Origin: a virus
DNA: 22,318 bases
Reading direction: 5' to 3' (one strand)
IMG/VR virus record: IMGVR_UViG_3300029319_000371
Span: 5,514-27,831 of that record
Below are positions 605-22,211 of the stretch, piece after piece. A program made the translations under genes and the position numbers. How positions within the stretch are numbered: position 1 is the first letter of the stretch; every line of letters starts with the position of its first letter. The notes below the pieces were generated by a model, which was given only the letters and a program-made list of their open reading frames with translations, ran no database searches and was not told the DNA's origin.

Positions 605-829
605 TCATTTATCCATAATATTTCTAAGAAGAGATTTAATCTCATCCATGTCTTGTTTTAAAGAGTCCAAATCACTACGCATATTATCAAATTTCTTTTT
701 TTCTTCGTATTTTTTTTGAGAAACTTTTAAAAATTTGTCAAATTCACTTTGATTTTGGTTGATAATTGCATTTGAATCTGTATCTCTAACAAGAGATACG
801 TCAGATTTTACTTTTAAATACTTTTCCAT
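605..829 (-). CDS. Conserved small coiled-coil phage protein of unknown function (74 aa)
   Basis: A 74-residue, highly charged protein with stop TGA. Its N-terminus, MEKYLKVKSDVSLVRDTDSN followed by AIINQNQSEFDKFL, matches a small-protein pattern that recurs in marine T4-like phages ('yLKVK....LVRDt.s.AIiN.n...y..fl'). From about residue 37 it becomes Lys/Glu-rich, and from about 50 to 72 it has heptad-like spacing (LDSLKQDMDEIKSLLRNIM), which predicts a C-terminal coiled coil. Its ATG overlaps the stop of the 2473-aa gene by one base (TAATG), so translation is likely coupled to that virion protein. That would fit a partner, chaperone or assembly factor, comparable in position only to small T4 proteins that help fibres assemble. 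No catalytic motif is visible and the function is unknown. Confidence 0.75.
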   Translation of the reverse strand: MEKYLKVKSDVSLVRDTDSNAIINQNQSEFDKFLKVSQKKYEEKKKFDNMRSDLDSLKQDMDEIKSLLRNIMDK

Positions 830-6800: not shown

Positions 6801-8250
6801 AGTGAATTACAGTAGAAAAATTATTTGCAGTTGTTAAAGTTGTGTAGAGTTGAAGATCATATACTTTTAAATCATATGTTGAGAATGAAGCAGCAGTTCC
6901 TACTACTTTCTCAGAATAGTCAAAAATTCTTGCATCTCCAATGATAGCACCTTGACCAGCTTGATTTACACCTAATCTTCTATCTCTCAAATTGACTATT
7001 GCATTTGCACCAAATCCAATGTTTGGTGTACCTTTTATATTTGTTACTTCAATTGAATTTCCTATTCTAATTGGAACGCTTTGATTTTCGACTAACTTAG
7101 TGGTTCTTGGTTTTAGAACATCAAGAGATGTGGAAGATAGCTTTTCAACCTCATAACCTCTCACATATGCTTTTCCAGAGGATATCTGTAGAGTAAGAAT
7201 ATCGTCTGATGGTGTATTACCGTTTTGTGTTTGTTGTGTGTCTAAGTATATTCCTCTATTACCAATTCTATCATTTAAACTTTCTCTTGCACTAACTGTA
7301 AATGGTCTAACATAATAATCTCCTGATTCATCATATGTTCTTCTTGCCAATTCATCAGCAAAAATATTATAATCACTTTTAGTAACTATTTTCTTTACTT
7401 CACCGTTTTCTATTCTGAATAATTCAACAAAATCAGCGTCGTCAGTATCTGTTAAAAGTTTTTTATGTAATGAAGTTGATAATCTAAACCTATCTGCACC
7501 TGGTGCTGCTTCATTAGAAAACCCTTTTGCATTATCGTATAAATCTGAATTAACAGAAGAAGGCCCTACTGTTTCTTCTTTTAGTAAAAATCCGACTCTA
7601 TAACTTGGACTATTTGAATATTGGTCTAATATTACAGTTGATGGTACATTTTTTATAAAAAATCCACGAACAAAGAAGACTCCTTCACTTATAGAGAATG
7701 AAGAACCAGTTGATGTTGAGTTTGATACTATACACCTTGCAAATTGACTGTCTGCTGCTATACTTGTGTTTAAATAATTAAAACTTGAAAGAGTTATTAA
7801 ATTTTCACCATCTAAAAAAGTAGGAGTTATCCCATCTCCACCTGATTTTGTATACTTAATATACAATGTATCAAAACCATCAATTGATTCAGATGCTGTT
7901 AATCTATTAACTACTGTCGCTTCTACCCCTGATGTTTCTCCTTGAATTTTTATTTTATTGTCTACTAAAACTTTTGTATAGTTACTAACTGGAATATTTA
8001 AGAAATTAGGATCTATTTTTACCGCAAAATACTCAGAATCATATGAAGTTCCACCAGGAATTACCATCGATCCTTCTTTGAAAAAATGTTGTCCAAATTT
8101 TTCAACTTGATTTTGAAGAATTGATTGTAATGTGGTTAATTCTCTTGCTTGAACTGGAAATCCTGGTTTAAATAAAACTTTATGATAGTTTTTACTATCA
8201 ACAAAGTCGTCAAAATAAGGAGAAACATTTAAATTTGTATTTTGTGGCAT
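829..8250 (-). CDS. Giant DUF4815-type virion structural protein, baseplate/fibre-associated (2473 aa)
   Basis: The N-terminus (residues 31-67: GFPVQARELTTLQSILQNQV, then FGQHFFKEGSMVIPGG) is the conserved opening of the DUF4815 family of T4-like marine phage virion proteins. Further family landmarks are DVSRVLAIFESND (about residue 810), DFRPRVAPY (R995) and MRDIGSLESRIKNLENYT (R1104 onward, a short coiled coil), continuing with LDKFKSGFFVDNF. A Thr run lies at 1343-1350, followed by a beta domain with LKPNTKYYVF. Residues 1656-1679 are an Arg-rich patch directly before DPLAQSFLVDGAEFESG and LFKSQNNTTWTPTQYEDLKF. Near the C-terminus are a GSGY element (Y1980), an IDKEII...RG module (about 2105-2170) and a conserved end domain (FMIKVVMTSTNQAKPPRLKN). 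No membrane segment is seen. The gene starts 5 bases after the gp8 stop and overlaps the next gene by one base. T4 has gp9/gp10 here, so it probably forms the outer baseplate or fibre-anchoring layer; that role is inferred from position and family. Confidence 0.8.
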   Translation of the reverse strand: MPQNTNLNVSPYFDDFVDSKNYHKVLFKPGFPVQARELTTLQSILQNQVEKFGQHFFKEGSMVIPGGTSYDSEYFAVKIDPNFLNIPVSNYTKVLVDNKIKIQGETSGVEATVVNRLTASESIDGFDTLYIKYTKSGGDGITPTFLDGENLITLSSFNYLNTSIAADSQFARCIVSNSTSTGSSFSISEGVFFVRGFFIKNVPSTVILDQYSNSPSYRVGFLLKEETVGPSSVNSDLYDNAKGFSNEAAPGADRFRLSTSLHKKLLTDTDDADFVELFRIENGEVKKIVTKSDYNIFADELARRTYDESGDYYVRPFTVSARESLNDRIGNRGIYLDTQQTQNGNTPSDDILTLQISSGKAYVRGYEVEKLSSTSLDVLKPRTTKLVENQSVPIRIGNSIEVTNIKGTPNIGFGANAIVNLRDRRLGVNQAGQGAIIGDARIFDYSEKVVGTAASFSTYDLKVYDLQLYTTLTTANNFSTVIHSHVKGKFSGSVGYAVGAVTNGTTIVLRDVTGLFQINEPLIINGIESGNNILTATDNSFEDVKAVTSSDFLANTVLDRKKKVFNEGIEFNITGGNALASGSIADFRSQLKVGDIITYASATAGDPNFNTVTSVAANSVGLAANQSLTGVCNGAVVNSTPTGVDVLIPTLKESDDPGFRVKLTDKYIASMNVLDSSYITRKQFTGTVSLNSVTFNINSLGGDTGNLFFEPFSATNYVLEVGDVVERLFSPMVTVNASLKTVTISGLSQANGAATLTAAVRRSKLSSKEKSLTRCNSLVIDKSSLDGSGITTTTFNDGLTTSDVYGTRIQDEEISLNVPDVSRVLAIFESNDSTDPDLPLIGVTNQTDTFSGNVTVGEQFIGSRSGAVARVVVVQASQLSFVYENESRFEIGESISLKTSGIVATVSGVTVGDRNILKNFDVDNGQRVEFADFARIIRKPNVEKPTRKLRIIFDNLVNNETSGNIETVNSYNTLSYSRDIPYVFDDYASDFIDFRPRVAPYTGGSISPFSFASRNFASTNSETVVSGKTVVVDYSYYLGRVDRLYLTKDGLLITKDGSPSRLPKAPIPNEDAFQVATVSLPPYIRDAQSEVLIKTVPHKRFTMRDIGSLESRIKNLENYTTLSLLETDTKNLSVKDPNTGLDKFKSGFFVDNFRNHNSHNLSGESKFDIDIENSECRPRSTERNVGLVFETVSTTANPTTTDYNYASDFADSNITRGKSALTLNYTEVPLIVQSYATRTENLNPFMVDIFVGVIELTPNSDFWVEEVPLVAQNIEITSVFNGIADLLGVEDRENGGMAPSFWNSSETTWNGRDSATLVSENVIDRQVLSTRSNATTTRSGRNTTTTTTTTRDVRNTIRQTFEESGTQTDFGLELSVGEEVVDLGTKVVGIDVHYQVRSRNVEVFAKRLKPNTKYYVFMENTDLTKYAVPKYLSITMNRGSFAVNEIVETAASAAVVGQANIKFRVASPDHKMGPFNNPLETQSRCILPDLGEITLPTAYSSTSQVLNVDTLDMGALNNVEHIGWVNKGMHLVNASGTAECEVGEVGLFSDEKGDLVFSLHIPDPKIEGNPLFTTGNNTIRVTTSPTNDVVLDPGSSSAEAEYLASGYQTNTQEQVLSIKTPIIERVEIGSEQVTRNFNVDRTEDTTETSVTRNTVRRGGGWGRVRRNRARRARARGRRGDPLAQSFLVDGAEFESGLCITSGELFFKTKDNEIPVTIQIRTMRDGIPTTTVVPFGETKVNPEDINLSDDGSAATTFKFDSPVFLQSGHEYAIVLMAFFTDKYLTFINRMGETDLLTQGLNSDQPVLGSLFKSQNNTTWTPTQYEDLKFTLNRAEFVTNTPSSVLLYNSELPLGQIKKENPVVGFSKRVNVKLSSANTTTFAQGEEIRQTSATSVVNTGRVLSTGGPLATGNSKLTIVADPVTGISGIGLTSGTFHNISATSLTGSGSGAVVELTVNTGVSAPNPIIAGAAVTVTTAGSGYAPGDLLLLGNIGATGSGVRAVVTSHVGIAGTDLIVLDNVKNDFVANRDIVHYAGSGTQTTIAASAIDTVNPDPVRDGYTLQFDHKNHGMHSSTNKVRISNFHPDGVPTVLTNNIDDDTTAITLTSGTNFTTFEGNAVSSSNPGYLLIDKEIISYDAISGDTITIEGSDRGIDQSLKSNHSANVLVYKYEFNGVSLRKINKDHDIDSREKTFDSYFVGINTTGSNTEPAFNATKSGGGSAVFASQNIPFEVISPQITSITPTGTNIASRVKTTGGTSLSGNEGSFTDKGYENVALNKLNYFDDPRIVASKVNEYNLLNNQKSFTLELTLSTDDSAVSPIVNLDNPNVILISNLVDNKVSDFETDSRPKIPGSDPNTAIYETKMINLEFVSNSLLVQFDGHREAEGDIRVFYKLIRGDGDDDHATYIPFNTNGLPDKVVNPNTTRNTFSEYKFTAENTAQFKQFMIKVVMTSTNQAKPPRLKNFRAIALRSFEIE
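3214..3285 (-). other. Arginine-rich patch within the 2473-aa virion protein
   Basis: Residues 1656-1679 contain 12 arginines in 24 positions, with Gly, Ala, one Trp, one Val and one Asn as the rest (RRGGGWGRVRRN, then alternating R/A and RGRRG). It follows an acidic/Thr-rich stretch (RTEDTTETSVTRNTV) and sits immediately before the conserved DPLAQSFLVDG block. The arginine codons are mixed (AGA, AGG, CGA, CGT), so this is not simple-repeat expansion. It looks like a flexible basic linker or surface-exposed binding patch; its role is unknown. Confidence 0.75.
4201..4224 (-). other. Poly-threonine run in the 2473-aa virion protein
   Basis: Eight consecutive threonines (residues 1343-1350) are encoded by ACA, ACT, ACG and ACC codons in mixed order. 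They lie within a wider Thr/Arg/Asn-rich linker (ATTTRSGRNT ... TRDVRNT). It separates the DUF4815 N-terminal half from the following beta domain and probably acts as a flexible linker. Confidence 0.7.
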
Positions 8251-8254
8251 CTTT

Positions 8255-9844
8255 TTAGAACTCTATGACTATTTTTACTTCTTCCTTTTGGGAGGAGGTT
8301 CTTGTTACTGGTGCTCGATTATCAATGTATATAATTTCACCAGAGTACTTTTTAACATCTGGACTTGCTTTTCCTAGATTAAACGTTTGTCCAAGGGAAA
8401 CATTTTTTCCACCAACTACAGTTGAACTTTGATTATTAAATGATGTATCAACAATCAAATTTTCAGGAGATCCTCCAGTAATAGCAGTTCCAAGTCCAAC
8501 AAAATCAAGTTTTTTATATGAATAATCTGATAGAGTGGAAAAACCTACTGGTTGATAGTATTTTAAAATTCCAGTATCTGGATTCCAAGATGCAACATAA
8601 CCAACTGCAGTAGAACCAACTCCCACTGTTTGTGTTATTAGTGCATTTGGAGAATAAGTGATTTGTGATGTGCTAAATCCAGATCCAGCATCTGGTTTTA
8701 ACTTTAAAGCACTTAAATTAGTTGCAGTCGTATTATTTAGAAGGTCAGTTCCACCAAATTGTAATGGATTTTTTACTAGACCAACACGGGAAAAATCATT
8801 ACCAAGAACATAGTCTGGAGCATCATCTATATTATTATCAAATTTTGCATATAACATAACTCTAAACCCACCAAGTTCACGATATATATCTGCACCATGT
8901 CCACCTTTTGGGGGAATTACAACTTCAAATTCAGCATCAACTCCTGGTACGAGAGTTTTTCCACCATATGTACCTGCCACAAATGTAACTGCAGCATATG
9001 TGTATCCTGAACCACCAATAACACCTGTTATACTTTCTACAACTCCACTATTAATGGTAATGGAAACTGATCCACCAGTTCCATCCCCACTTATTGGAAT
9101 ATTAGAAATAGTTCCTGTAGATGAAACTACACCATTTGTGATGATACTATATCCAGAACCACCATTTTTTATAACGACAGTTTCGACTCTTCCATCAACA
9201 GCAGCATCCTTTATAGTTTTTGTTGTTGTATCACCCCATTCTTTAGGTAGTGGTATATAGGTAGTGGTTACAAATTTAACTATATCTGATGGTGAAATAG
9301 TATAGAGATACTTCCAGAGATAACCATCTGAACCATTGCCAGCTTGTTGAGGAACTACATTTGTATGAGTTGGTTCAAATAATGACTTTTGACCATCTGG
9401 ATTATCTGCATTAGAACCATTATTGATACACAAATATACATTAAATTCCGAATTTATAACAAAATAACTTGACCCATATAAAGTAGTAGATTTACTTTGT
9501 GGTGTTAAATTAGTGCTAGAATAATTATTTCTATACATCTCATATACTGTTCCAGTTTGCCAATCTAATCTAGGAACAACTCTTCTAATATCATTTGAGG
9601 TTACTTTTTTTAAAAAAAGCATACTATCATAATAATAATTTTCCTGATCAAAAGCATCTACAGGATTTGGTACAGGACTTCCCCAATTAGAGTTACCATA
9701 ATTTGGCACACTAATATTTTTTGGATTTGGATGACCCAAAAATGAATAATAGTTATTATTTCCAGTTGTACCAATACCTACAAAACTGTCTATAAAAGTT
9801 TCTGCGTTTAATATACGATATTGGTCAGTGATTATTGCGGGCAT
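8255..9844 (-). CDS. 8: Baseplate wedge protein gp8
   Basis: A 529-residue protein starting MPAIITDQYRILNAETFIDS, followed by NNYYSFLGHPNP, then NYYYDSMLFLKKVTSNDIRRV, DWQTGTVYEMYRNNYSS, FNVYLCINNG, EPTHTN and GSDGYLWKYLYTISPSDIVKF (residues 171-191). Later come PPKGGHGADIYRELGGFRVM (311-330) and NDFSRVGLVKNP. This order is characteristic of gp8 in T4-like phages, which dimerises in the baseplate wedge and contacts gp10, gp7 and gp6 in T4. T4 gp8 is 334 aa; the extra length includes a G-x-G-Y repeat region at about 215-300 and a longer C-terminal part. The start is fixed by an in-frame TAA three codons upstream (9851-9853) and by the family-typical N-terminus. A late promoter lies 20 bases upstream of the ATG. 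The next gene starts 5 bases after its stop. Confidence is high for family and moderate for the exact contacts in this phage. Confidence 0.9.
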   Translation of the reverse strand: MPAIITDQYRILNAETFIDSFVGIGTTGNNNYYSFLGHPNPKNISVPNYGNSNWGSPVPNPVDAFDQENYYYDSMLFLKKVTSNDIRRVVPRLDWQTGTVYEMYRNNYSSTNLTPQSKSTTLYGSSYFVINSEFNVYLCINNGSNADNPDGQKSLFEPTHTNVVPQQAGNGSDGYLWKYLYTISPSDIVKFVTTTYIPLPKEWGDTTTKTIKDAAVDGRVETVVIKNGGSGYSIITNGVVSSTGTISNIPISGDGTGGSVSITINSGVVESITGVIGGSGYTYAAVTFVAGTYGGKTLVPGVDAEFEVVIPPKGGHGADIYRELGGFRVMLYAKFDNNIDDAPDYVLGNDFSRVGLVKNPLQFGGTDLLNNTTATNLSALKLKPDAGSGFSTSQITYSPNALITQTVGVGSTAVGYVASWNPDTGILKYYQPVGFSTLSDYSYKKLDFVGLGTAITGGSPENLIVDTSFNNQSSTVVGGKNVSLGQTFNLGKASPDVKKYSGEIIYIDNRAPVTRTSSQKEEVKIVIEF

Positions 9845-9872: not shown

Positions 9873-9899
9873 CCTGTTATTAATAAACTAATATCAGGT
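9872..9899 (-). other. 28-base inverted repeat over the stop codon of the giant gene
   Basis: Read on the minus strand, the arms are ACCTG-A-TATTA and TAATA-A-CAGGT around a 6-base loop: two 5-bp stems separated by one A/A mismatch. The 5' arm contains the last codon and the TGA stop of the 3469-aa gene, and the last base of the 3' arm is the first base of the gene 8 late-promoter box. No T-run follows, so it is not a standard intrinsic terminator. A 3'-end protecting or processing hairpin is possible. Confidence 0.5.
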
Positions 9900-12800
9900 T
9901 ATTGTGTATATAGTTTGAACAGGTAGGGTTCGAACTACTTGAGCTGATGTTTCAATTCCAAGAACTCCATTTTGATTATGGAAAGTAAATGATTTAGAAT
10001 TAGAACCTCTAGTAACATTAACTGAACCCCAACTATAAGTTCCAGATTTAAAATAACTTGTTAATCCTGATGTATCTATTCCTGCGATTGAATTAACATT
10101 TGCAAAAACTCTTACTATCGAAGATCCAACTGATACATGATGTTCGGCAAAATATACATTATCTAAGAAAGTATTTCCAATACTAACAGTTTCTGGGCCA
10201 GAAGATGTAGTTCTTATACCAGTAACTCCGTTACCAATAAAAGTATTTTTTATTACAAAGTAATCACCAGTAGTGATTCCTGACCTTGTTATTTCATTTC
10301 CTTCAGGACTTGCTGAATATATTGTAGGATCTGGTTTGATTTCAAAGAATATAGCGGGCCCAGTTGTATTAATTCCAGTTGCACTAGTTCCAACTCCAAC
10401 CACTATTCCGTAATCTCCTGAATATGTAACTCCTTGAATTTTTTCAATAACAGTTGTTGATCCTGATCCAATAATGTTTATAGAATTTTTCGTTCCACTT
10501 ACATTATCAATTTCTCCAAATAACCAAGAATCTTTAATGTATATTTTAGAATCAGTAGGAGACACTGACTTTATAATTCCTGATGTCGGATATATCTGTG
10601 GTTCTAAGTAATTTCTTTCTTTAGATATCCTTATACCATCAATAATTGTATCTTCTGTTTGTTTTCTCCACATTGTTGGTCTAGTAAAGTTACTATCAGT
10701 TACTATTCCAACACTTGCATAGGTTGTTGTTTCTACGGTATCTGCTGCAATTAACTCATAAACAACCCTATTATCTTGTTCAGAAATATTATCAGAATAC
10801 TGCAATTTCAATTCATCTCCTGGTTTTATGGTTTCTTCAACATTAACTCCAATAAAATCATCAGTGGAACCAGTATAAAAATACATTTTAAATTTACTAC
10901 CTTGTTTTGGTGCTTCTTTAAATGATATTCTTGTTCCACCATTAAATTCATAGTCTCTACCAGGTTTTTGTAAAACATCATTTATGAATATTAGTAAATT
11001 ATTCTGCAATATGATTCCAGAACCTTCTTGAGCAACTATACTATAGTACTCTTTATTAGTTTCTGTTCGAGTTATAAGGAATGATTTTCTAAATCCATTA
11101 AATTGGAAACTAAAATCGTCAAGTTCTAAAAGTTGACCAAAACCCCAACCTGCAAATTTATCTTGGAATTTATTCTTAACAGTCACTTTAAATGTTGTTG
11201 TTGCTGCTCCTACTTGGAATGGTAGGGCATTTAACTCCAAAACATCTCCGATCTCATAACCAATACCACGATTCACCATATCAAATGATACTATACTGCC
11301 TCCAGTTCCGACTACAACATCTATTTTGGCACCAGAACCTTGATTGGATCCACTTAAGTTATCTAAAGATAAATTTCTGTATGGACTTGGTAATGGTGCA
11401 GTTACAAAAGTTAATCCAGTGCTTATACCTGTGTTTGTATATCCAGTTCCTGGATTTACAATTGAAACGGATGTAACTACGCCAGCAGTCACAAATGCAG
11501 AAATCGCTGCACCAACACCAGTTGTTGAACTAACAGATACTAATGGATTAGATAGATATCCTGAACCTCCAGTTAAGATACCAACTGATTGTATTGTTCC
11601 AGCTGCTGATACCACTGCATTAAATAATGCTTTTCTAGGAACTTGATAACCACTTCCAATGCCAACATCAAACTCATTAATAATTCCACCTCTGGGTAAA
11701 TCTTTGTTTGCTGTTGTTCCTGTAAAATCAATAGTTTGACCAGTTCCAACAAATTCATAATCTGATTTTGTAATATCACCACTAGTATCACCTAAGAAAG
11801 GTCTTTGGAATATGTTATTGATTAATACCACACCAAAACTAGTATTAATACCAGTTAATTGAACACCATTACTTGTTAAGTTAAACTTATCTGTAGATCC
11901 ATCAAATTTATCTGATATGTCATCTATGATTGTATTGGTATTATAAGATTTTCTGTAATATGCTCTACCATTAAAGATTGAAGACGTTTTTATTCCTGTA
12001 TTTCCTGTTGAACCAAAAGGTGCATCAGAAAAATATATTTTACCTTCATCAATTCTGTAATCACCTTTTACAATTGTCACTGCTGCTCCAACTGTATGTG
12101 CTGTAGCAACAGTTCCCATCTGACCTCTAATAACATTTAAGGTTGTGTTTCCAACACCAACTATATCAACTTTAATAATTTCGTCTTCTATTTTAATTAA
12201 TGATTTTCCTGAAATCTCTTTAGTGTCATTTAAAAATATAATATTAGTAGATATTCCTACTGAACTGGATAATCCTACAGAAATTGTGGTGTTAATACCT
12301 ATAGGACTTTGAATAATGTTATCAATACTAATTAATGTTCTAATGGTAGCATTATCTGAAGGAACTGAAAGACTATTAGTAGTTCCAATACCCACTGCGT
12401 TAGTGAATGAAACCGCAATTCCAGCACTTGCATAAGATTCTGATACTGCTATTCCTATGGTATCCTCAGTTTTTTTAATTGCAAAAACAGTTGATGGTAA
12501 TAAGTTAGTAACACCAATACCTGGAACATCTGTATTTGCAATCCCTATCGCTGATTCTCCTGAGTGTGGTTTGTAAATTAATTCCTCACCAGTATTAAAA
12601 TTATGTCTAGGTATGGTAATATCATGATTTGAAGTAGAAACTCCCGTAGAGGGACTAAATTCCCTATGAAATAGAGAGTTTCCATCCGTGAAAACATTAA
12701 AAATAGTTTGTCCAATAATACCGCCACCAGTTGAAGTTACTATTCCTGTAAACTGTGAACTTATGTCATCTATTAAAAATACTTTATTTGTAACGGATTC

Positions 12801-15800
12801 ATTATAGTCAGTTATTATTTTAGATTTAAATACAACTAATTTTGAAAAATCTGGATCTTCAGTATCTTCACTAACTAGATCATAATAATATTTTTCATGA
12901 ACAGATGCTTCTTCATCAATATCAACCTCCAAAGTAACTTCACCATCAGATTTTAAACTCTGGGTTCCTACTGAACTTATTCCCAAATTGCAGAAATTTT
13001 TAAAACCAGCAGTATGATCTAAACTATTAACTGCATCTTTCCAAGTTTCAAATGGAACATCACCCTTAATTGAGTATGAAAATCTTTGATAATAGTCATT
13101 ATCATGTATTCTTTGTATATCTAAATTCAATTTTCCCGAATCAGTTTTCCAACTATTAATAATCCTTGCTGTAGAATCTACATTTAAGTCAAAATCAAAT
13201 TTAAACTGATTAGTAACAGTTCCTTTATTGTTACTAATTGAACCTACAATTAAGTCATTATTGGTAAATTCTCCAGTAACGTTAAAAACTTTTAATGTTT
13301 GTGAAATTGGATCCCAACCATTTTCGGCAACAACTCCCGAAATGTTTTTATCAGGAATTTCAACAATTTCATTTTCAAAGAATGAAGATTTTTTAAATTC
13401 GGGTTTAAACTTTGCTAAGTGTGATGCTTTTATAACTCTACCAAAATTATTATCTTGTTTATATGTTCCTCCAGTTGTTCCAAGTCCAACTAAAGAGTAG
13501 GTGATAGTTTCACCGCCACCAGCAGTACTTGCAATGCCAACTGTAAAAGTTTGATAATCATAAGCACTAGAATTATATCCATCATTACCTTCTACAGTTT
13601 TAATATTTTCAACGAATATCTCATCTCCTACTTCAAAAGGAAAACTTCCTCCCTGATTAAAAAATCCACTTTGACTGGTATCGTCTGGTTGTGGTGCTCT
13701 TAGACTTAAAGTAACTGTTCTATCACCATTAGTCACTGCTTGTGTCACTACTATTCCATTTGAATTATTAATAGGAATAATTCTAAGATCGTCAGATAAT
13801 CCACTATCATTAGTTAAAATTTTAATATCACTGACTGAAGTTCCATTTAGAGATGTTTGAGCAACTATATTTGGTTTACCAATTGCAATAACTTGTGGTG
13901 GACTTGTATAATTAACTCCTCCAGTAACAATACCTATATTCTTAAGTGTAAGTATATCTTTTAATTCTAAAATGACATTACTATCTGCTTTTGGTTTTAA
14001 AGTATGATCTGGTGAAAATTCTAATCCTTGATCAAAAACTTGAGTATCATCAACACTTCCAATACCATCTGATTCTACGGTTAATATTGCACCTGTGCCA
14101 CCAGTAGTTCCTATTGATGTAATTATTGGTAATTCTTGAACATTAAATCCTCTATTTAAAACATTTATTGAATGTATTCCACCACTTTCACCTGAAGACT
14201 TTGTTGAATAGAACGCAGATGAGAATCCACTCTTGGCAGCATCATTATTGTCAAATAAACTTGTTTCCCCAATACCAGTCGAATTAAATTTAAAATTGGT
14301 ATCTGCGATTCCTACAACTTTAAATGGTCTATTAAATTCAGAATCAAGCACTACTAATTTTGAATAATCTGGAACTCTTTCATCCACAGAAAAAGATAGT
14401 GTTTTAGTTGAGTTAGTATTTTTACCTTCAATTCTGTAATAGAATTCAGAAGTTAATGAATTTGCAACAGATATAGTAGTTTGATCATTTGTTTGTGTAA
14501 TTTGATCACTATTATATTTTGATTTAAAGTTAATATCCTCGTAAAAATGTAAATCAAAATCATTTAAACTTGAATCAGAGGTTAAAAATTGAATAGTATT
14601 ATTTTTATATAAAGTTAATTTTGGATTTATCTTTGATATTTGATGACTTGTTCCACCAACTCCTGATATAACAGTATAATTATATGGAAATACTGATAAA
14701 TCATAAGAATTTTCTGCTAATCTTATAGTATCTCTTGAATCTTTAACAACGTAATAAACGCCATTATCAACAAAGGGAGTTGCTGGAGATGGTGAATTAT
14801 AAACAACTAAATCTCCCGTTTCAAAATCGTGATTATTAATTGTTATTTTTGATACCGTAGTTCCAATTCCAATCGCTGTATCTGCAAATAATAATGGATT
14901 AACTACTAATTTTCTAATATTTTCATTATATCTTAAATCAAAGGTTTGAGTTCTATTAGAGGTTACATGCAATTCAAACTCATCGTTCAGTGATAAACCA
15001 TGCTGTTGACCTGTGGTTGTAGCACTTGCAACAGTAACTGTTCCATTCACCCTTCTTAAAGATCCAGAAAGATTGTTTACAATCCTTTCAATTTTATTGT
15101 CATCACCAGCTGTGGTTACAACTGATCTAAAGAATAAATGACTAGTTGTAAATCCAGGTGAGTTTTCAGTAGCCAGTCCAATAAATTCATTGTTAAATTT
15201 AACACAGTAAAATTTATCAATAGTTACTAAGTCAAATTGACTCGATAGATCTGCATTTTTAGAACCCTCAATTGTACATCCAATTGAAACTAATTTGACT
15301 TCATCTCCAGTCTCAAATTTATGATTAGGTAAATAAATTCCTTTTGCTGGAATTGATTTGTTAATCGCTGTGCTTCCTGCAAATCCCACAACTACATTAG
15401 TGGTAGTACTTCCAATTCCAACTGCTTTTGCTGCTTCGAAATATTCTACTTTTGGTAATTCTAAATTTTTATTTTCAATTTTTTTAGGGACAGAATAGGT
15501 AAATTCTGTTTCTAATTTAGTAATTAGTGCTCCTGCATTGTGTGTTGCATTTGAAGTTAAATTATGTTCTCTTCTAATTCTATATTTGTTATTAACATCA
15601 TCATGACCAATAATTAAAAATTGTTCAGAATCAATTTGAATTGCATCATTAACTTTAAATTTTCTATTGATTGTAGGTTCTGAAAAAGTCACGAAAGTTG
15701 TAATACCAGTAGTAGCAGCATTTGCCATTGACTCTGATAAACTAGAAACCATTGTTGATAACCCAATGGTTCTAATACCTTCTATGTTTTTATAATTAGT

Positions 15801-18800
15801 TGATGATATTCCAGATATTTCAACAACATCTCCATCAGAAAGACCATGAGGGACTGTAGATACACCAGTTACTTTGCCATTAATTATTGAAAATTTTAAA
15901 TTATCTACTATTGTATTTGTTGTTCCTATTGATACTATGGGTTTTCCTAGAATTTGAGAAACTTTTGCAGATATGGTTAAATCATTAAAGTTTATTGTAT
16001 CATTTACCTTGTAACCTGATCCAGACTCATTTACACTAATGGAAGTTATTTTAGAAGAATTGACACCATCAACTTTAATTATGGCATTTGAATTTAATGG
16101 ATCTTCAAGTAATGGGTAATTTCTATTTTGATCATTTAATCCTAAATGAGTTACATTTCTCTTGTATTCTCCAGTATTTAAAGTTAAATCTGATTGAATT
16201 TTGCTTATGTCATAATTAAACTCATCTGTTGCATTGCGATGCAAAAATGTAGTGTATGGAAATGATGGATTTTTAGTTATATCATCTATAGTTGAAAAAT
16301 AAGCATAAGTTCCATCTGGAAAATCAGCATTTTTTGTAAATTTTCCATTATACTCATCTAAATCACCATTACCTCTATAGATATAATCTTGCACAAAATA
16401 ACCATTTTGGTAAAATGGTCTTAAACCTGTATCAGCAACAATATCAAGATCATAACTAGATTTTATAAATGTAGTTATTCCAGAAACATTTTCACCAACT
16501 GGGCCATAAATTGGATTTCCATCATATGCCCATCCAACTATTTTTGAATGAGTATCAGTTGATTCTACAAAATTTTCGTCAATATTATCTTTAAGTAACC
16601 GACGATATCTTTTTACTGGATAAAAAGAACATATCTTATTTTTATTATTTAAAGATACTGATCTTAATTGAACAAGTTCTGAGTTACTATCAGTTAGTAC
16701 ATCCTTATATCTTTCTACCGAATTTATTTTCCAATTATGTATATTAGATCCAATAATTGATTCAGAACCAGTTGGAATTACTTTTATAAACGTATCATTA
16801 GAATCGTATCCTGTTCCACCAGAAATTATATTAACACTTGTTATTTTTCCATCAGAAACAACAGATTCTAATTTAGCAAATAAACCAGATGTTCCAGATG
16901 TTCCACCAACTCCTACAACTTCAAGTTCAGGAGGAGTTGTATACTCAGATCCAGAATTTAATATATCAACACCAATTATTTTCCCATTAGTAATAATTGG
17001 TGTTATAATTCCATCTTTACCTGTTAGTAATCTTACGTTAGGTCTACGAAGGTAGTTAATGATATCTGTTACTCCATAACCAACTCCACCATTTCTAACA
17101 AAAATACTTTTTAGTCCACCTTTAACCATTGCTTTTGCAGACGCTTTATAATAATCTGGAATTATAGTTGTTGATCCAGCAGAAACTTTACCCTCAATTT
17201 TAATTTCAATATCTGGATATTTAAATGTATGAGTTCCAACTCCAATGTTATTTAAATTTGTATATATTTTCCTATCATAATTTGTATTTGATACTGTTGT
17301 TGCTGTTCCTGCACTACTTAACTTAAATTTATCTTTATCAATGACTGTAACCTTATACACTGTATTTGAATTTAATCCACCAATCACAGTATCACTAGTA
17401 GAGTACTCAATTACATCACCATTTACAAAACTATGATTTTTAGCATAAATGTAATTATTAAATGTGTTTATACCTACAAATGTTTTAAATATATCTTTTT
17501 TATTATTAGGTGGATATTGTTGAGATGATACCAATACTTTATGATTTGTATATGACGAACCAGACTCTTTAACTACAATTTTGTCAATTACTTGCCTTAC
17601 TTTTTTAGATTTAAAAGTATGAGTTTGAGTTCCATTATCGATAATTTCTAAAAGATTATTTTTATTGAGTGCTCTATTTTTAGTAATTGCTAATTTAAAA
17701 GAATTATTGTCTATTTTTGAAATAAAATAATTACTTCCTGATGTTAATCTATCAGTGCTAAATCCAACACTAGCAACGCTAGTATTAGTATTAATTCCTA
17801 CAGGAATTTGTGTAGCTGTATATGTTACTTCCTCTCCATCCAAGAACCTGTGATCACCAACAAATGTATCATTTGATGTATTGATGTCAAATTCAGTAAA
17901 TGATTTAGTATGAATAAATCCTTTCATTTTTGCTTCGCATATAGCACCTACTCCATTTCCACCTGTTACCCTTACAGAGGGAACTTCAGAATAATCAAAT
18001 CCACTCTCATTTACAATTACCTCTGATAAACTACCTGAGAAGTTTGCATATGCCTCACAATCGCTTCCTGAGTCATCTGTGATTGATATTGTAGGTGGAT
18101 TTACTACATTAAAATCTTTTCCAGAACCTAAAACTTCAAAATTATCAATTTGCCCATAAAATACAGAATCTTCAGAAATTGGTGAATGATACTCTACACC
18201 ATTTAATGATAATCCTATTGCCCCAACAATATTTGAGTTGTTTTTAGATACCTGTGGGTTTTTATATATTCTTTTAAAATTATTCTGATTTACTAATTTC
18301 TCACCATCATACAAACTCGCAGGTGTTATGGTATGTGTACCAGTTCCTAAATCATCATACTTAATTTCTTCAAAAGAATTTCTGTACAAGTTTGCAAGAT
18401 TCAAAGATATCTTAAAATTATCATTATCAACAACTTTTACATAAAAATATCCACTAGTGCTTCCAGATATTCCAGAATCAGAAGATATTGAAAAGTAAAC
18501 TCTTTCACCATTTACAAAATTATGATCAGGTATGGTAATTGTATTTGTGTTTGTACTAATTCCTGATGAGGAAACAGTTTTTGACCTATTTGTTGTTTCA
18601 GTATCAAAAGATGGGTATCCAGAAAAAGCAACATAAGTATTTTTATCAACATCTGAAAAAGAATTTTGAATATTTGAAAGAAGAGATGTAATTCCAAAAT
18701 TTGATGAGGCATAATTTAATTTTTTCTTGACTATGTAATCACCATATACTATAGAACTCAATGAAGTTCCTCCACTTATTAAAAATCTAGTTGGAGTGTA

Positions 18801-20303
18801 TACATCAGCGACAGTCGCATCAGTTATGATAGGACTATTTGTGTCTTTAAAGATAATATCTACTTTATCTCCATTTTTCAAAAAATGTTCAGTTAATGTT
18901 TCAAAAGTTGATGATCCAGCATTATGCTGTTGAACATTAACATATGAAAGATTATTATAAAACCAAGTATTAAATTTTTTATTAGATATATCATATTTTT
19001 CACCCAAATGTTTAACTCTAATAGAATCGTTTTTATCAAAATATTTGGTAACATTAATATTATCAGAAGCACCAGAGATAGATCCAACTATTCTCATTAT
19101 ACAAATCTTAGTTAAGTCATTATCTTCGTAACCATATACAAAATTAGTGTCAATGACTGGATCAGATTCTGTTAGAAGTCTTACTACACCTGTACATCCA
19201 AAAAATTGATTGCTTGACTTAGATGTGTATTCTGCTAAAGTGTAAATGTTATTATCATTTAAATAATAAAAATTACCTGTTGCTCCAAATCCAATTGTGG
19301 AATCAACTGTTAAAACTTCTGTTGTTGATGCAGTTCCAACTACTTTTGTTTTTGTTGAAATCTTAAATGTATCATTTATAGTGCCTTTTGAGAAAGATAT
19401 TCGATAATATTTTTTATTTCCTAAGAATTTTGTTGTAACATTTGAAACTGCACCACTAGCAGTTGGATTTGTAAATGCATCTTGATATATTTTAACACCA
19501 ACTAAATTTAGTGGATCACCAGAAATAACTTCAACTACAATGTCATCAGTTACATCCCATTCCGCTTCTGATGGTATTATTACTTGTTCAAATGGTTTAA
19601 TAACTTCAACTTGTTCTCCATATAAAACTTGAAAAAGTATTTGTAATGAGGTATCTGTTCCTTTTGAACTATAAAAGTCTCTTGCTCTTGATAATATGTT
19701 CTCAATATTTAAACCATAACCTAAACTTCTTCCTTCTATGCCAGGTAAAAAATTATGTCTAAATTTTTTGTAAAATTCAACTACAAAGAGAAAACTTAAG
19801 TTTACTACTGATGAATTTGCAGTATGTGCTGTAGCATTTGTATCACTAAATGTTAAAAACTCAGGATTCTCAAGAGTTTCAATGGTGGATATACCACTAA
19901 ATCCACGAATACATCCAGTAAAGGTAGTATCAGTTTTTCCAGTATACGTAATAATCTCATCATCAATTTTTAATAGTCCATAACTATCTGGAAATCCAAT
20001 TGTTTGATTTACATTAATTACATCATCAAATGCATATGATATAGAAGTTAAAACTACTGGTGATGCTGGAGTGGAACTATTTGGTGCATTAACTGTTTGT
20101 TTTTCAACCAAAGAAATGTCTGAAACAGTTGATATCTTCTTAAAAGAGGAGATATGATCAGATATGTATGTTGTACCATAATCGTGCTCCTCGTACTCAT
20201 AGTACTGAGTCAAAAACTCTTTAAAAAGTGGATTATCTGCTTGTATAAAATCTGGTATTTGACTACCAAGAATATTTGAAATTTTTACTTTTTTATCAGA
20301 CAT
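9894..20303 (-). CDS. Giant modular baseplate wedge protein in the gp7 position (3469 aa)
   Basis: This gene lies between genes 6 and 8, where T4 has gene 7 (gp7, 1032 aa), but its product is more than three times as long. Residues 1-260 look like a conserved assembly domain: IPDFIQADNPLFKEFLTQYY, an IDDEIITYTG...RGFSG module (113-137), VEFYKKFRHNFLPGIEGRSL and ARDFYSSKGTDTSLQILFQV (about 207-226). The rest is a chain of beta-rich modules: nine H-x-F/L-x-x-G-D/E units (H473 to H2567), many G-x-G-Y elements (Y1076, Y1121, Y1166, Y1431, Y2916, Y2955, Y3016), a YHYH-like domain (about 1250-1355), a second IEDEII...RG module (about 2690-2755) and two 'NxxxQxP...APxxG' modules (about 2795-2870 and 3060-3150). 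No membrane segment or signal peptide is seen. The ATG follows the gp6 stop by 3 bases (TAA-CAG-ATG). Assignment as a gp7 equivalent rests on synteny; the C-terminal 3000 residues may instead form peripheral baseplate or adhesin structures. Confidence 0.75.
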   Translation of the reverse strand: MSDKKVKISNILGSQIPDFIQADNPLFKEFLTQYYEYEEHDYGTTYISDHISSFKKISTVSDISLVEKQTVNAPNSSTPASPVVLTSISYAFDDVINVNQTIGFPDSYGLLKIDDEIITYTGKTDTTFTGCIRGFSGISTIETLENPEFLTFSDTNATAHTANSSVVNLSFLFVVEFYKKFRHNFLPGIEGRSLGYGLNIENILSRARDFYSSKGTDTSLQILFQVLYGEQVEVIKPFEQVIIPSEAEWDVTDDIVVEVISGDPLNLVGVKIYQDAFTNPTASGAVSNVTTKFLGNKKYYRISFSKGTINDTFKISTKTKVVGTASTTEVLTVDSTIGFGATGNFYYLNDNNIYTLAEYTSKSSNQFFGCTGVVRLLTESDPVIDTNFVYGYEDNDLTKICIMRIVGSISGASDNINVTKYFDKNDSIRVKHLGEKYDISNKKFNTWFYNNLSYVNVQQHNAGSSTFETLTEHFLKNGDKVDIIFKDTNSPIITDATVADVYTPTRFLISGGTSLSSIVYGDYIVKKKLNYASSNFGITSLLSNIQNSFSDVDKNTYVAFSGYPSFDTETTNRSKTVSSSGISTNTNTITIPDHNFVNGERVYFSISSDSGISGSTSGYFYVKVVDNDNFKISLNLANLYRNSFEEIKYDDLGTGTHTITPASLYDGEKLVNQNNFKRIYKNPQVSKNNSNIVGAIGLSLNGVEYHSPISEDSVFYGQIDNFEVLGSGKDFNVVNPPTISITDDSGSDCEAYANFSGSLSEVIVNESGFDYSEVPSVRVTGGNGVGAICEAKMKGFIHTKSFTEFDINTSNDTFVGDHRFLDGEEVTYTATQIPVGINTNTSVASVGFSTDRLTSGSNYFISKIDNNSFKLAITKNRALNKNNLLEIIDNGTQTHTFKSKKVRQVIDKIVVKESGSSYTNHKVLVSSQQYPPNNKKDIFKTFVGINTFNNYIYAKNHSFVNGDVIEYSTSDTVIGGLNSNTVYKVTVIDKDKFKLSSAGTATTVSNTNYDRKIYTNLNNIGVGTHTFKYPDIEIKIEGKVSAGSTTIIPDYYKASAKAMVKGGLKSIFVRNGGVGYGVTDIINYLRRPNVRLLTGKDGIITPIITNGKIIGVDILNSGSEYTTPPELEVVGVGGTSGTSGLFAKLESVVSDGKITSVNIISGGTGYDSNDTFIKVIPTGSESIIGSNIHNWKINSVERYKDVLTDSNSELVQLRSVSLNNKNKICSFYPVKRYRRLLKDNIDENFVESTDTHSKIVGWAYDGNPIYGPVGENVSGITTFIKSSYDLDIVADTGLRPFYQNGYFVQDYIYRGNGDLDEYNGKFTKNADFPDGTYAYFSTIDDITKNPSFPYTTFLHRNATDEFNYDISKIQSDLTLNTGEYKRNVTHLGLNDQNRNYPLLEDPLNSNAIIKVDGVNSSKITSISVNESGSGYKVNDTINFNDLTISAKVSQILGKPIVSIGTTNTIVDNLKFSIINGKVTGVSTVPHGLSDGDVVEISGISSTNYKNIEGIRTIGLSTMVSSLSESMANAATTGITTFVTFSEPTINRKFKVNDAIQIDSEQFLIIGHDDVNNKYRIRREHNLTSNATHNAGALITKLETEFTYSVPKKIENKNLELPKVEYFEAAKAVGIGSTTTNVVVGFAGSTAINKSIPAKGIYLPNHKFETGDEVKLVSIGCTIEGSKNADLSSQFDLVTIDKFYCVKFNNEFIGLATENSPGFTTSHLFFRSVVTTAGDDNKIERIVNNLSGSLRRVNGTVTVASATTTGQQHGLSLNDEFELHVTSNRTQTFDLRYNENIRKLVVNPLLFADTAIGIGTTVSKITINNHDFETGDLVVYNSPSPATPFVDNGVYYVVKDSRDTIRLAENSYDLSVFPYNYTVISGVGGTSHQISKINPKLTLYKNNTIQFLTSDSSLNDFDLHFYEDINFKSKYNSDQITQTNDQTTISVANSLTSEFYYRIEGKNTNSTKTLSFSVDERVPDYSKLVVLDSEFNRPFKVVGIADTNFKFNSTGIGETSLFDNNDAAKSGFSSAFYSTKSSGESGGIHSINVLNRGFNVQELPIITSIGTTGGTGAILTVESDGIGSVDDTQVFDQGLEFSPDHTLKPKADSNVILELKDILTLKNIGIVTGGVNYTSPPQVIAIGKPNIVAQTSLNGTSVSDIKILTNDSGLSDDLRIIPINNSNGIVVTQAVTNGDRTVTLSLRAPQPDDTSQSGFFNQGGSFPFEVGDEIFVENIKTVEGNDGYNSSAYDYQTFTVGIASTAGGGETITYSLVGLGTTGGTYKQDNNFGRVIKASHLAKFKPEFKKSSFFENEIVEIPDKNISGVVAENGWDPISQTLKVFNVTGEFTNNDLIVGSISNNKGTVTNQFKFDFDLNVDSTARIINSWKTDSGKLNLDIQRIHDNDYYQRFSYSIKGDVPFETWKDAVNSLDHTAGFKNFCNLGISSVGTQSLKSDGEVTLEVDIDEEASVHEKYYYDLVSEDTEDPDFSKLVVFKSKIITDYNESVTNKVFLIDDISSQFTGIVTSTGGGIIGQTIFNVFTDGNSLFHREFSPSTGVSTSNHDITIPRHNFNTGEELIYKPHSGESAIGIANTDVPGIGVTNLLPSTVFAIKKTEDTIGIAVSESYASAGIAVSFTNAVGIGTTNSLSVPSDNATIRTLISIDNIIQSPIGINTTISVGLSSSVGISTNIIFLNDTKEISGKSLIKIEDEIIKVDIVGVGNTTLNVIRGQMGTVATAHTVGAAVTIVKGDYRIDEGKIYFSDAPFGSTGNTGIKTSSIFNGRAYYRKSYNTNTIIDDISDKFDGSTDKFNLTSNGVQLTGINTSFGVVLINNIFQRPFLGDTSGDITKSDYEFVGTGQTIDFTGTTANKDLPRGGIINEFDVGIGSGYQVPRKALFNAVVSAAGTIQSVGILTGGSGYLSNPLVSVSSTTGVGAAISAFVTAGVVTSVSIVNPGTGYTNTGISTGLTFVTAPLPSPYRNLSLDNLSGSNQGSGAKIDVVVGTGGSIVSFDMVNRGIGYEIGDVLELNALPFQVGAATTTFKVTVKNKFQDKFAGWGFGQLLELDDFSFQFNGFRKSFLITRTETNKEYYSIVAQEGSGIILQNNLLIFINDVLQKPGRDYEFNGGTRISFKEAPKQGSKFKMYFYTGSTDDFIGVNVEETIKPGDELKLQYSDNISEQDNRVVYELIAADTVETTTYASVGIVTDSNFTRPTMWRKQTEDTIIDGIRISKERNYLEPQIYPTSGIIKSVSPTDSKIYIKDSWLFGEIDNVSGTKNSINIIGSGSTTVIEKIQGVTYSGDYGIVVGVGTSATGINTTGPAIFFEIKPDPTIYSASPEGNEITRSGITTGDYFVIKNTFIGNGVTGIRTTSSGPETVSIGNTFLDNVYFAEHHVSVGSSIVRVFANVNSIAGIDTSGLTSYFKSGTYSWGSVNVTRGSNSKSFTFHNQNGVLGIETSAQVVRTLPVQTIYTIT
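12393..18887 (-). repeat. Dispersed H-x-F/L-x-x-G-D/E protein modules in the 3469-aa protein
   Basis: At least nine segments share an 'H(N/K/D/S/R/G)F/L..G(D/E)xVxY' start. The best-preserved copies are followed by a gap and then a 'YyV..id.d.FkLa' strand. They begin at H473, H594, H818, H957, H1486, H1661, H1768, H1825 and H2567. Several are followed by a 'GTGTHTI/F' strand (examples: DDLGTGTHTITP, NNIGVGTHTFKYP). The pattern resembles the FCCH-like beta-barrel repeats often found in large phage tail proteins. The copies have diverged greatly at nucleotide level, so they are old duplications. Confidence 0.65.
16239..16556 (-). other. YHYH-like domain embedded in the 3469-aa protein
   Basis: Residues about 1250-1355 carry the landmarks of the YHYH domain family: GWAYDGNPIYGPVGE (W1258), then LDEYNGKFTKNADFPDGTYAYFSTID and, after a short gap, FPYTTF (F1348). 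The naming motif is degenerate: where family members have Tyr-His-Tyr-His/Phe, this protein has Y1333-A-Y-F1336, so the first conserved histidine is Ala. The surrounding residues remain well preserved, which argues for a retained structural fold. Confidence 0.65.
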
Positions 20304-20306
20304 CTG

Positions 20307-22211
20307 TTATCTTGTATATTTTTTGTTGCTAATAAAACTAGACGGTGGTATGTAATTTGTTCCCGATACATTAGATCCAGAAACAAGAACATCCTCTAAT
20401 AAATTCAATTTACTATTTCCTGTAGTATCTAGCACAATATAAAGATTCTCTTTTGCAACAATATCATTAGATTCTGGAGTAACTTCAATTTCTACTCTAT
20501 TTTGTATTGTTGACGATACAATAGTGATTGGAAATAGCAAAACTTCACCTTTTACATAATCCACAGTGCCTGCATTACTATTAATATATGTAATCACACC
20601 CTCATTGATTGTAAAAAACTTAACAACTCCTGTAAGTTGATCATTATTTGGAAAATCTGTTAAATATACATCTTTTTCAACTCCATCTATTTTAAATGCA
20701 GAAGAACGAACATTAAATCCTTCTAAATCAGCGTGAAATTTGTTTCCATAGCAAATTTCGTAAGTTGCAAGTTTATTATATGAGGGAACTAAATTTCTTC
20801 TTATTACAAGAGTCGTAATATTTGAAGTTATACCATTATCAACCTTATCAATTTGAGAAAGTAACTTACTATACTTCAATCTTCCACCAAAAGAGTTTAT
20901 ATCTGGAGATTCTGCGTAACTTTCAACTGCAGATAGTATTCTGGACTGTAAATTTAACTTGTCACTAATAAATCCTGAGTCATACGACACAGTTGAGTCA
21001 AATTCAACATACAAATACATCAAATCTAAAAATTCTTGTTTAATTCCAGCTACTGTGTACCTTTTTAAATCATTTTTAATCAAATTTTTTGCTACTGCTG
21101 ATAAAAATTCACCATTTTTTGGTTTTACAGTGATGTAAACCTTTCCAAATTGAGGTGGATCTAGTTCCTCTCCACCATAAGCACTTACGGAGTCAATATT
21201 TGGATATAAAAAGGGTATTAAACTCTTATAATCATTAGGTGTAACTGCTCTATACTGAGAGGCATAGACTCTAGGAGCAAGATATTTAATATTGTCTATA
21301 GATTCTATGTCATCTCCATTTTCAGACCGTTGTGTGGTCGTTAAAAGGGATATGTTACTTGTAATATCGACATCCGCACCACCAAAAAGGTATGTTAATC
21401 TTCCTGCAAAGTTAAAATTAGCAGCATCATTACCATCTTTTCCATTTGAAACAATGTATGTAACTCTAATTTGTGATCTATTTCCAGGATGCTTACCTAA
21501 AACACCATCTCCAAACATAATTTGATATTTTTCATCATCTATCTCTTGAACTAAAAATAATCTAGAGTTTTGATTTACTTCAAATATGTTTGTATAGAGA
21601 TTGTATTGAAATGTAGCACCTGCATCTCCCGTTTCATCCATTTCTACAACATCTACACGAATTGAAGATGTATCTATATTTCTATTGGGTAAAATATATC
21701 TTTCATTTGCTTGTGAACCATCTACAGTGAAAGTTTTAGTTAGATAAGTACCTTCATAAATGGAAATATCATTAAAACTTGCAATTCCATTACTATTTGG
21801 AGTGACTGTAATGTCCTCTGGTATTGAAAATGTATAATTTCCACCTTGAACATTACCCAATGCAACTAAACCTGCGTTCAATTTGACTTGTTTAGCGTTA
21901 AGTGATGATACATCAACATTAAAATTAACCTTCGCAATTGCCGATTTAGTTGATCTTGGCACATAACCTATATTTCTTGCTAATGATACGACATTTTCAC
22001 GTAGAGTTGCACTATCAATGAATGATTCATTGACAGACATGTTCGTATTATATGCAGTTATGTAAGAGTTATAAGCAAGAGTATCGATTAAAATTGAAAA
22101 ATTAGATCCTTCAAAGTCAAAATCAGAAAAATTTGAGTTTGCTCTCAAATAATCTTTGATCTGAGTTCTTATGGTATTGAAATCGAGGTTAGTAAACTGT
22201 GTAAATGACAT
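20307..22211 (-). CDS. 6: Baseplate wedge protein gp6
   Basis: A 634-residue protein, close to T4 gp6 (660 aa). The N-terminus, FTNLDFNTIRTQIKDYLRAN, then FSILIDTLAYNSYITAYNTN and MSVNESFIDSATLRENVVSL followed by ARNIGYVPRSTKSAIA, is the conserved opening of gp6 in T4-like marine phages. A baseplate J-like core follows, with the glycine motif MFGDGVLGKHPGNRSQIRVT at 232-251. IKYLAPRVYASQYRAVTPND (308-327) and GKVYITVKPKNGEF (356-369) are further landmarks. In T4, gp6 dimers form the inner ring joining the wedges around the central hub, together with gp25 and gp53. The ATG overlaps the stop of the upstream gp25-like gene by one base (TAATG) and the next gene starts 4 bases after its stop, so these three genes form one translationally coupled block. 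No strong Shine-Dalgarno sequence is visible. The start is supported by the family N-terminus and the overlap. Confidence 0.92.
   Translation of the reverse strand: MSFTQFTNLDFNTIRTQIKDYLRANSNFSDFDFEGSNFSILIDTLAYNSYITAYNTNMSVNESFIDSATLRENVVSLARNIGYVPRSTKSAIAKVNFNVDVSSLNAKQVKLNAGLVALGNVQGGNYTFSIPEDITVTPNSNGIASFNDISIYEGTYLTKTFTVDGSQANERYILPNRNIDTSSIRVDVVEMDETGDAGATFQYNLYTNIFEVNQNSRLFLVQEIDDEKYQIMFGDGVLGKHPGNRSQIRVTYIVSNGKDGNDAANFNFAGRLTYLFGGADVDITSNISLLTTTQRSENGDDIESIDNIKYLAPRVYASQYRAVTPNDYKSLIPFLYPNIDSVSAYGGEELDPPQFGKVYITVKPKNGEFLSAVAKNLIKNDLKRYTVAGIKQEFLDLMYLYVEFDSTVSYDSGFISDKLNLQSRILSAVESYAESPDINSFGGRLKYSKLLSQIDKVDNGITSNITTLVIRRNLVPSYNKLATYEICYGNKFHADLEGFNVRSSAFKIDGVEKDVYLTDFPNNDQLTGVVKFFTINEGVITYINSNAGTVDYVKGEVLLFPITIVSSTIQNRVEIEVTPESNDIVAKENLYIVLDTTGNSKLNLLEDVLVSGSNVSGTNYIPPSSFISNKKYTR

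What the first reader, a model, noticed from the sequence alone, without database searches (positions are those of the whole stretch)
16239..16556. YHYH-like domain with a broken signature inside a baseplate-region protein
Residues about 1250-1355 preserve the landmarks of the YHYH family (AYDGNPIYGP, LDEYNGK, FPDGTY, FPYTTF), but the eponymous motif reads YAYF. YHYH proteins are known mostly as poorly characterised secreted or surface proteins of bacteria. A copy embedded mid-chain in a phage structural protein, with the likely functional His lost, suggests reuse of the fold as a binding module.
Basis: partly seen in the sequence, partly recalled or inferred. Interest (0 to 1): 0.6.

Follow-up and report, generated by a model that had tools for sequence, protein, structure and literature searches.

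The report
Dead half-domain in phage baseplate protein
A giant baseplate protein of a T4-like marine phage carries the second half of a bacterial "YHYH" domain without the histidines that would hold a metal, so this known component is probably a structural or sticking module rather than an enzyme, and the supposed "broken" motif YAYF is in fact a normal part of the domain.

Summary
A YHYH (PF14240) match is really present: 63 bits, E 3.5e-17, residues 1246-1340 of a 3469-residue protein encoded between gp6 and gp8. It covers only the second half of the profile (about 86-183 of 193). The central claim, that the eponymous motif is broken and reads YAYF, is wrong. YHYH lies in the first half of the domain, upstream of DGxP. 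YAYF is a separate C-terminal motif: 8 of 8 distinct intact phage YHYH proteins carry both, and bacterial YHYH proteins carry YAYF too. All three family histidines are absent here, and none of 89 related baseplate copies keeps any. This contradicts, for these copies, a published prediction that phage YHYH domains are Zn-dependent hydrolases. The module is not hypervariable, and no match was found in the shorter proteins at the same locus of HTVC008M and Melnitz, so it is accessory. I favour a non-catalytic structural or docking module. YHYH domains in marine phage baseplates were already known. No solved structure resembling the fold was found.

The parts
9894..20303 (-). P0001, 3469-aa baseplate wedge protein (phrog_2885) encoded between gp6 and gp8; host chain of the module
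   Evidence: phrog_2885 'baseplate wedge subunit', E 0, residues 1-2519
16284..16568 (-). C-terminal half of a YHYH domain (residues 1246-1340)
   Evidence: PF14240 E 3.5e-17, profile 87-183 of 193; modelled with pLDDT mostly 82-94
16500..16529 (-). AYDGNPIYGP (residues 1259-1268); the family-invariant DGxP aspartate is kept
   Evidence: D in 77 of 77 cellular copies
16341..16361 (-). LDEYNGK motif (residues 1315-1321)
   Evidence: L-D..NG conserved in A1 and A2
16296..16313 (-). GTYAYF, the C-terminal G-x-Y-x-Y motif (residues 1331-1336); not the eponymous YHYH
16593..16637 (-). KICSFYP-V-KRYRRLL (residues 1223-1237), proposed counterpart of YHYHGMP-EGFIAK; ICSF in place of YHYH
   Evidence: Profile-profile alignment (low local confidence), same strand, four residues, helix spacing in both models, intermediate sequences
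20307..22211 (-). gp6 baseplate wedge protein
   Evidence: PF21379 E 1.7e-16 and phrog_219
8255..9844 (-). gp8 baseplate wedge protein
   Evidence: PF09215 E 4.4e-14 and phrog_438
829..8250 (-). VrlC-like DUF4815 protein following gp8
   Evidence: PF16075 E 1.3e-53; same place as annotated VrlC in P-SSM7 and S-ShM2

Best explanation
Residues about 1223-1350 are a degenerate YHYH domain embedded in the long, beta-rich baseplate wedge protein that sits between gp6 and gp8. The fold of the second half is kept; the first half, which holds the three metal-site histidines, has diverged beyond recognition and keeps none of them. The module therefore most likely does no metal-dependent catalysis. It acts as a rigid structural or docking module in an accessory part of the baseplate that most cyanophage-type relatives carry and two other marine relatives lack. 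Shown: homology, half-coverage, absence of the histidines, conserved position, conservation profile, no match at the same locus in two isolates. Inferred: that loss of the histidines means loss of catalysis, and the structural/docking role itself.
For: Half-profile match only. H151 kept in 73/77 and both YHYH histidines in 76/77 cellular copies and 8/8 distinct intact phage copies, against 0/89 baseplate copies of this type. The only His in residues 1190-1345 is H1252, in a different motif. Profile-profile match E 2.7e-37 to the intact family, with KICSFYP opposite YHYHGMP. Same order of strands and helix in the two models. The module is as conserved as the whole protein among close homologues (0.69 v 0.70) and more so among distant ones (0.48 v 0.30). 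Same-locus proteins of HTVC008M (1016 aa) and Melnitz (896 aa) keep homologous stretches, including the N-terminal one, but give no module match in the default search.
Against: No coordinates could be superposed; pLDDT at the ICSF segment is only about 56, so that exact pairing is tentative. Only four distant homologues entered the conservation test, two of them identical in score. The DGxP aspartate is kept, so some metal or ligand site cannot be fully excluded. No experiment shows the structural role or the location in the virion.
Confidence: 0.66

Rival explanations
1. The module is a receptor- or glycan-binding domain that touches the host surface.
For: The pelagimyophage paper lists YHYH domains among carbohydrate-binding and host-recognition-linked domains (PMC7029224). 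It is an accessory, beta-rich module of the baseplate.
Against: It is not hypervariable; it evolves no faster than the rest of the protein, unlike typical receptor-binding tips. No lectin family match.
Confidence: 0.2
2. It is still a metal-dependent hydrolase, as predicted for phage YHYH domains (Iyer et al. 2021, PMC7824862), with the metal ligands supplied differently.
For: Published prediction based on three conserved His and an Asp; the DGxP aspartate is kept here.
Against: None of 89 copies of this class keeps any of the three His; residues 1190-1345 contain a single His. The intact version exists as a separate protein in some phages (S-ShM2_094).
Confidence: 0.08
3. A pure folding relic with no role, kept only because it cannot be removed from a long chain without disrupting it.
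For: HTVC008M and Melnitz proteins at the same locus give no match for it.
Against: Its core is among the more conserved stretches in distant homologues, which implies selection.
Confidence: 0.06

Closest known systems
PF14240 YHYH proteins of bacteria (e.g. Deinococcus sp. KNUC1210 WP_239051980.1; Pfam survey in two phyla)
   Same: DGxP, LDExNG, GxYxYx and FPY landmarks; significant profile match; same predicted order of strands in the second half
   Different: The cellular proteins have the full-length domain with H-x6-YHYH; here the first half is unrecognisable and its histidines are absent
Intact cyanophage YHYH proteins (S-ShM2_094 YP_004322760.1; ACG-2014d gp072; S-SSM4 CYXG_00060)
   Same: YAYF C-terminal motif, DGxP, phage origin, encoded in the baseplate cluster
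   Different: They keep CGGHPEQxGxYHYH or a near variant and carry a weakly recognised alpha/beta-hydrolase or PHA-depolymerase-like C-terminal part; separate proteins of about 573-590 aa
phrog_2885 and gp6-gp8 giants of cyanophages ('baseplate wedge initiator', e.g. S-PM2 p081, S-B05, DSL-LC03)
   Same: Same gene position, N-terminal homology, same half-module, near residue 1250 in most
   Different: Ordinary sequence divergence (about 30-45% identity at the N-terminus)
Pelagibacter phage HTVC008M gp055 and Melnitz gp161
   Same: Same locus after gp6 and before gp8 (Melnitz has further genes before gp8); homologous N-terminal and some C-terminal stretches
   Different: Roughly a quarter to a third of the length, no YHYH module match in the default search

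Membership tests
PF14240 YHYH | Profile score above the curated cut-off (25 bits) | tested here: met
   63.4 bits, E 3.5e-17
PF14240 YHYH | Coverage of the whole domain (positions 1-193) | tested here: not met
   Only positions 86/87-183 match; most strong cellular hits start at 1-7
PF14240 YHYH | Eponymous YHYH motif upstream of DGxP | tested here: not met
   No YHYH in the protein; the equivalent place appears to read ICSF
PF14240 YHYH | C-terminal motifs DGxP, LDxxNG, GxYxYx, FPY | tested here: met
   All present
Predicted phage YHYH Zn-dependent hydrolase (PMC7824862) | Three conserved His plus Asp | tested here: not met
   0 of 3 His, DGxP Asp present; 0/89 related copies keep the His
Predicted phage YHYH Zn-dependent hydrolase (PMC7824862) | Hydrolase activity and metal binding | not testable with these tools
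   No experiment reported in the papers found
phrog_2885 baseplate wedge subunit | Profile match over the N-terminal 2500 residues | tested here: met
   E 0, 2296 bits
T4 gp7 | Sequence similarity to T4 gp7 | tested here: inconclusive
   phmmer of the whole protein against PDB chain sequences gave nothing at E<=1; only the gene position (between gp6 and gp8) agrees. Distant homology is not excluded

The most novel reading that the evidence does not exclude
The marine T4-like phages turned a bacterial metal-site protein into a non-catalytic building block of the baseplate, while some of them (e.g. S-ShM2) keep an intact copy encoded next door, so that dead and intact YHYH domains sit in one cluster and may pair or divide labour during adsorption.
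Probability: 0.15. Interest if true: 0.55.

Novelty: new member of a known kind. Interest (0 to 1): 0.33.

Why it matters
It corrects where the YHYH signature is and shows that a published function (Zn hydrolase) cannot be carried over to the commonest phage copies seen here, which are annotated by the same name. It also defines a clean experimental pair: the intact domain and its His-less relative from the same phage. The YHYH fold itself has no solved relative that these searches could find.

Tried and rejected
Rejected: YAYF as the mutated YHYH. First genome-contig scan with the phage domain found no cellular relative; repeated with a Deinococcus protein. PDB by sequence: whole protein, Deinococcus protein and both profiles gave nothing convincing. 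Foldseek PDB gave no match at E<=0.001 for either model. Foldseek viral library was run only for the cellular model; its best named hits are cyanophage YHYH proteins. Considered that H1252 might be one of the site histidines: rejected, that position is not invariant and lies in another motif. A cupredoxin-like insertion in related copies, seen by eye, found no Pfam support. Could not identify which phage protein AOO14285.1 (the example in PMC7824862) is; the S-RIM14 and S-CAM7 proteins looked at carry other numbers. One Pfam call failed on coordinates.

Full report
What was found. The window is part of a 27.8-kb virus contig. Its genes run gp6 - P0001 - gp8 - VrlC-like DUF4815 on the minus strand, the arrangement of marine T4-like phages. 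P0001 has 3469 residues and matches phrog_2885, baseplate wedge subunit. Pfam YHYH (PF14240) matches residues 1246-1340 with E 3.5e-17.

Where the eponymous motif is. The match spans only profile positions 86/87-183 of 193. In bacterial YHYH proteins the sequence runs ...NAHVQPxGxYHYHGMP...DGFPxY...LDECNG...GxYxYx...YPY. The Deinococcus fragment that ends just after YHYHGMP maps to profile 3-86, and the rest to 91-193. It reads YAYF in 135 of 169 distinct viral domains. Eight of 8 distinct intact phage proteins have YHYH and YAYF in one chain. In the profile-based survey of two bacterial phyla (28 of 398 and 34 of 296 genomes with a match), YAYF is among the commonest C-terminal states, carried mainly by members of the second phylum.

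The histidines. Columns of a profile built here give H151 in 73/77, the two YHYH histidines in 76/77 and the DGxP aspartate in 77/77 cellular copies. Twelve of these 77 come from a search seeded partly with YHYHGMPE or from its neighbours and lean towards the motif; the other 65 come from the Pfam survey. Of 89 baseplate copies of the present type, none keeps a histidine at those columns, and 84 or more have no aligned residue there. Profile-profile comparison (E 2.7e-37) places KICSFYP opposite YHYHGMP, with low local confidence. Both AlphaFold models have a strand, four residues and a helix at that point, and other phage copies read, for example, GYGVVANP, QYTHLYAP and GEYAHLSNP there. I therefore read the first half as diverged rather than deleted. 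P0001 has one histidine between 1190 and 1345, H1252.

Related copies. Three kinds occur in cyanophages: intact proteins of about 573-590 aa with YHYH (S-ShM2_094 and relatives); 'baseplate wedge subunit' proteins that keep a recognisable first half without the histidines (ACG-2014d gp074, S-SSM4 CYXG_00062); and the half-matching kind in the giants. A tree of the second half puts the phage copies together with a group of cellular proteins from the phylum sampled through a Flavobacteriaceae genome (FastTree on about 111 columns, midpoint rooting, deep branches not tested).

Is it dispensable? The N-terminal 333 residues match 466 phage records and the YHYH module 462, with the same numbers by organism word (Synechococcus 372, Cyanophage 61, Prochlorococcus 24, Marine 5); the surplus is four Methylophilales records. 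The Melnitz protein at this locus (896 aa) and HTVC008M gp055 (1016 aa) have homologous stretches to P0001, with no module match in the default search; with filters off only scores of 2.5 and 0.9 bits appear. The module is thus accessory, and most cyanophage-type relatives keep it. Its sequence is not hypervariable.

Reading. Most likely a non-catalytic structural or docking module. The binding reading is second. The hydrolase reading (PMC7824862) fails its own defining feature here. The presence of YHYH domains in these phages was already known (PMC7824862, PMC7029224), and several database records name it. What is added is the position of the motif, the loss of the site in this whole class of copies, and the absence of a match in two isolates.

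Limits. No coordinates could be superposed; the ICSF segment has pLDDT about 56; cellular sampling is two phyla; the contig is a fragment; records close to the window may be hidden from some searches.

Noticed in passing
L144:27940-29661 (S-ShM2_094); also L145:15783-17546 and L152:8223-9995: Intact YHYH domain fused to a weakly recognised alpha/beta-hydrolase or short-chain PHA-depolymerase-like part (for S-ShM2_094: NF050058 E 4e-7, below its cut-off; Abhydrolase_2 E 0.002). S-ShM2_094 is annotated 'gp7 baseplate wedge initiator', which its sequence does not support.
   Followed up: partly
L152 CYXG_00062 residues about 311-454; L062 PSSM7_092 residues about 360-480 and 540-665: Cupredoxin-like stretches (by eye, e.g. 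NHPLALS...YFCRYHALMG) inserted in or beside YHYH domains of a cyanophage baseplate protein; no Pfam support.
   Followed up: partly
L392:33435-36485 (HTVC008M gp055): Annotated 'head closure Hc2' although it lies between gp6 and gp8 and is homologous to the baseplate protein P0001; P0001 residues 2884-2958 match phrog_460 (head closure Hc2) in a region of GxGY repeats, a possible cause of the name.
   Followed up: partly
window 9894-20303, P0001 residues 594, 957, 1486, 1661, 1825, 2567: Repeated H-x-F/L-x-x-G-D/E motifs resembling the E1_FCCH domain (PF16190 E 0.00023, below cut-off).
   Followed up: no
G000:C1 about 4031-5734 (L002): Runs of undetermined residues (XXXX) in two ORFs next to the window, probably scaffold gaps.
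   Followed up: no
BFVD hits A0A5J6VJS1, A0A5B8IDC5: YHYH domain proteins in giant eukaryotic viruses (Megaviridae sample, Mimiviridae ChoanoV1) resemble the cellular model.
   Followed up: no
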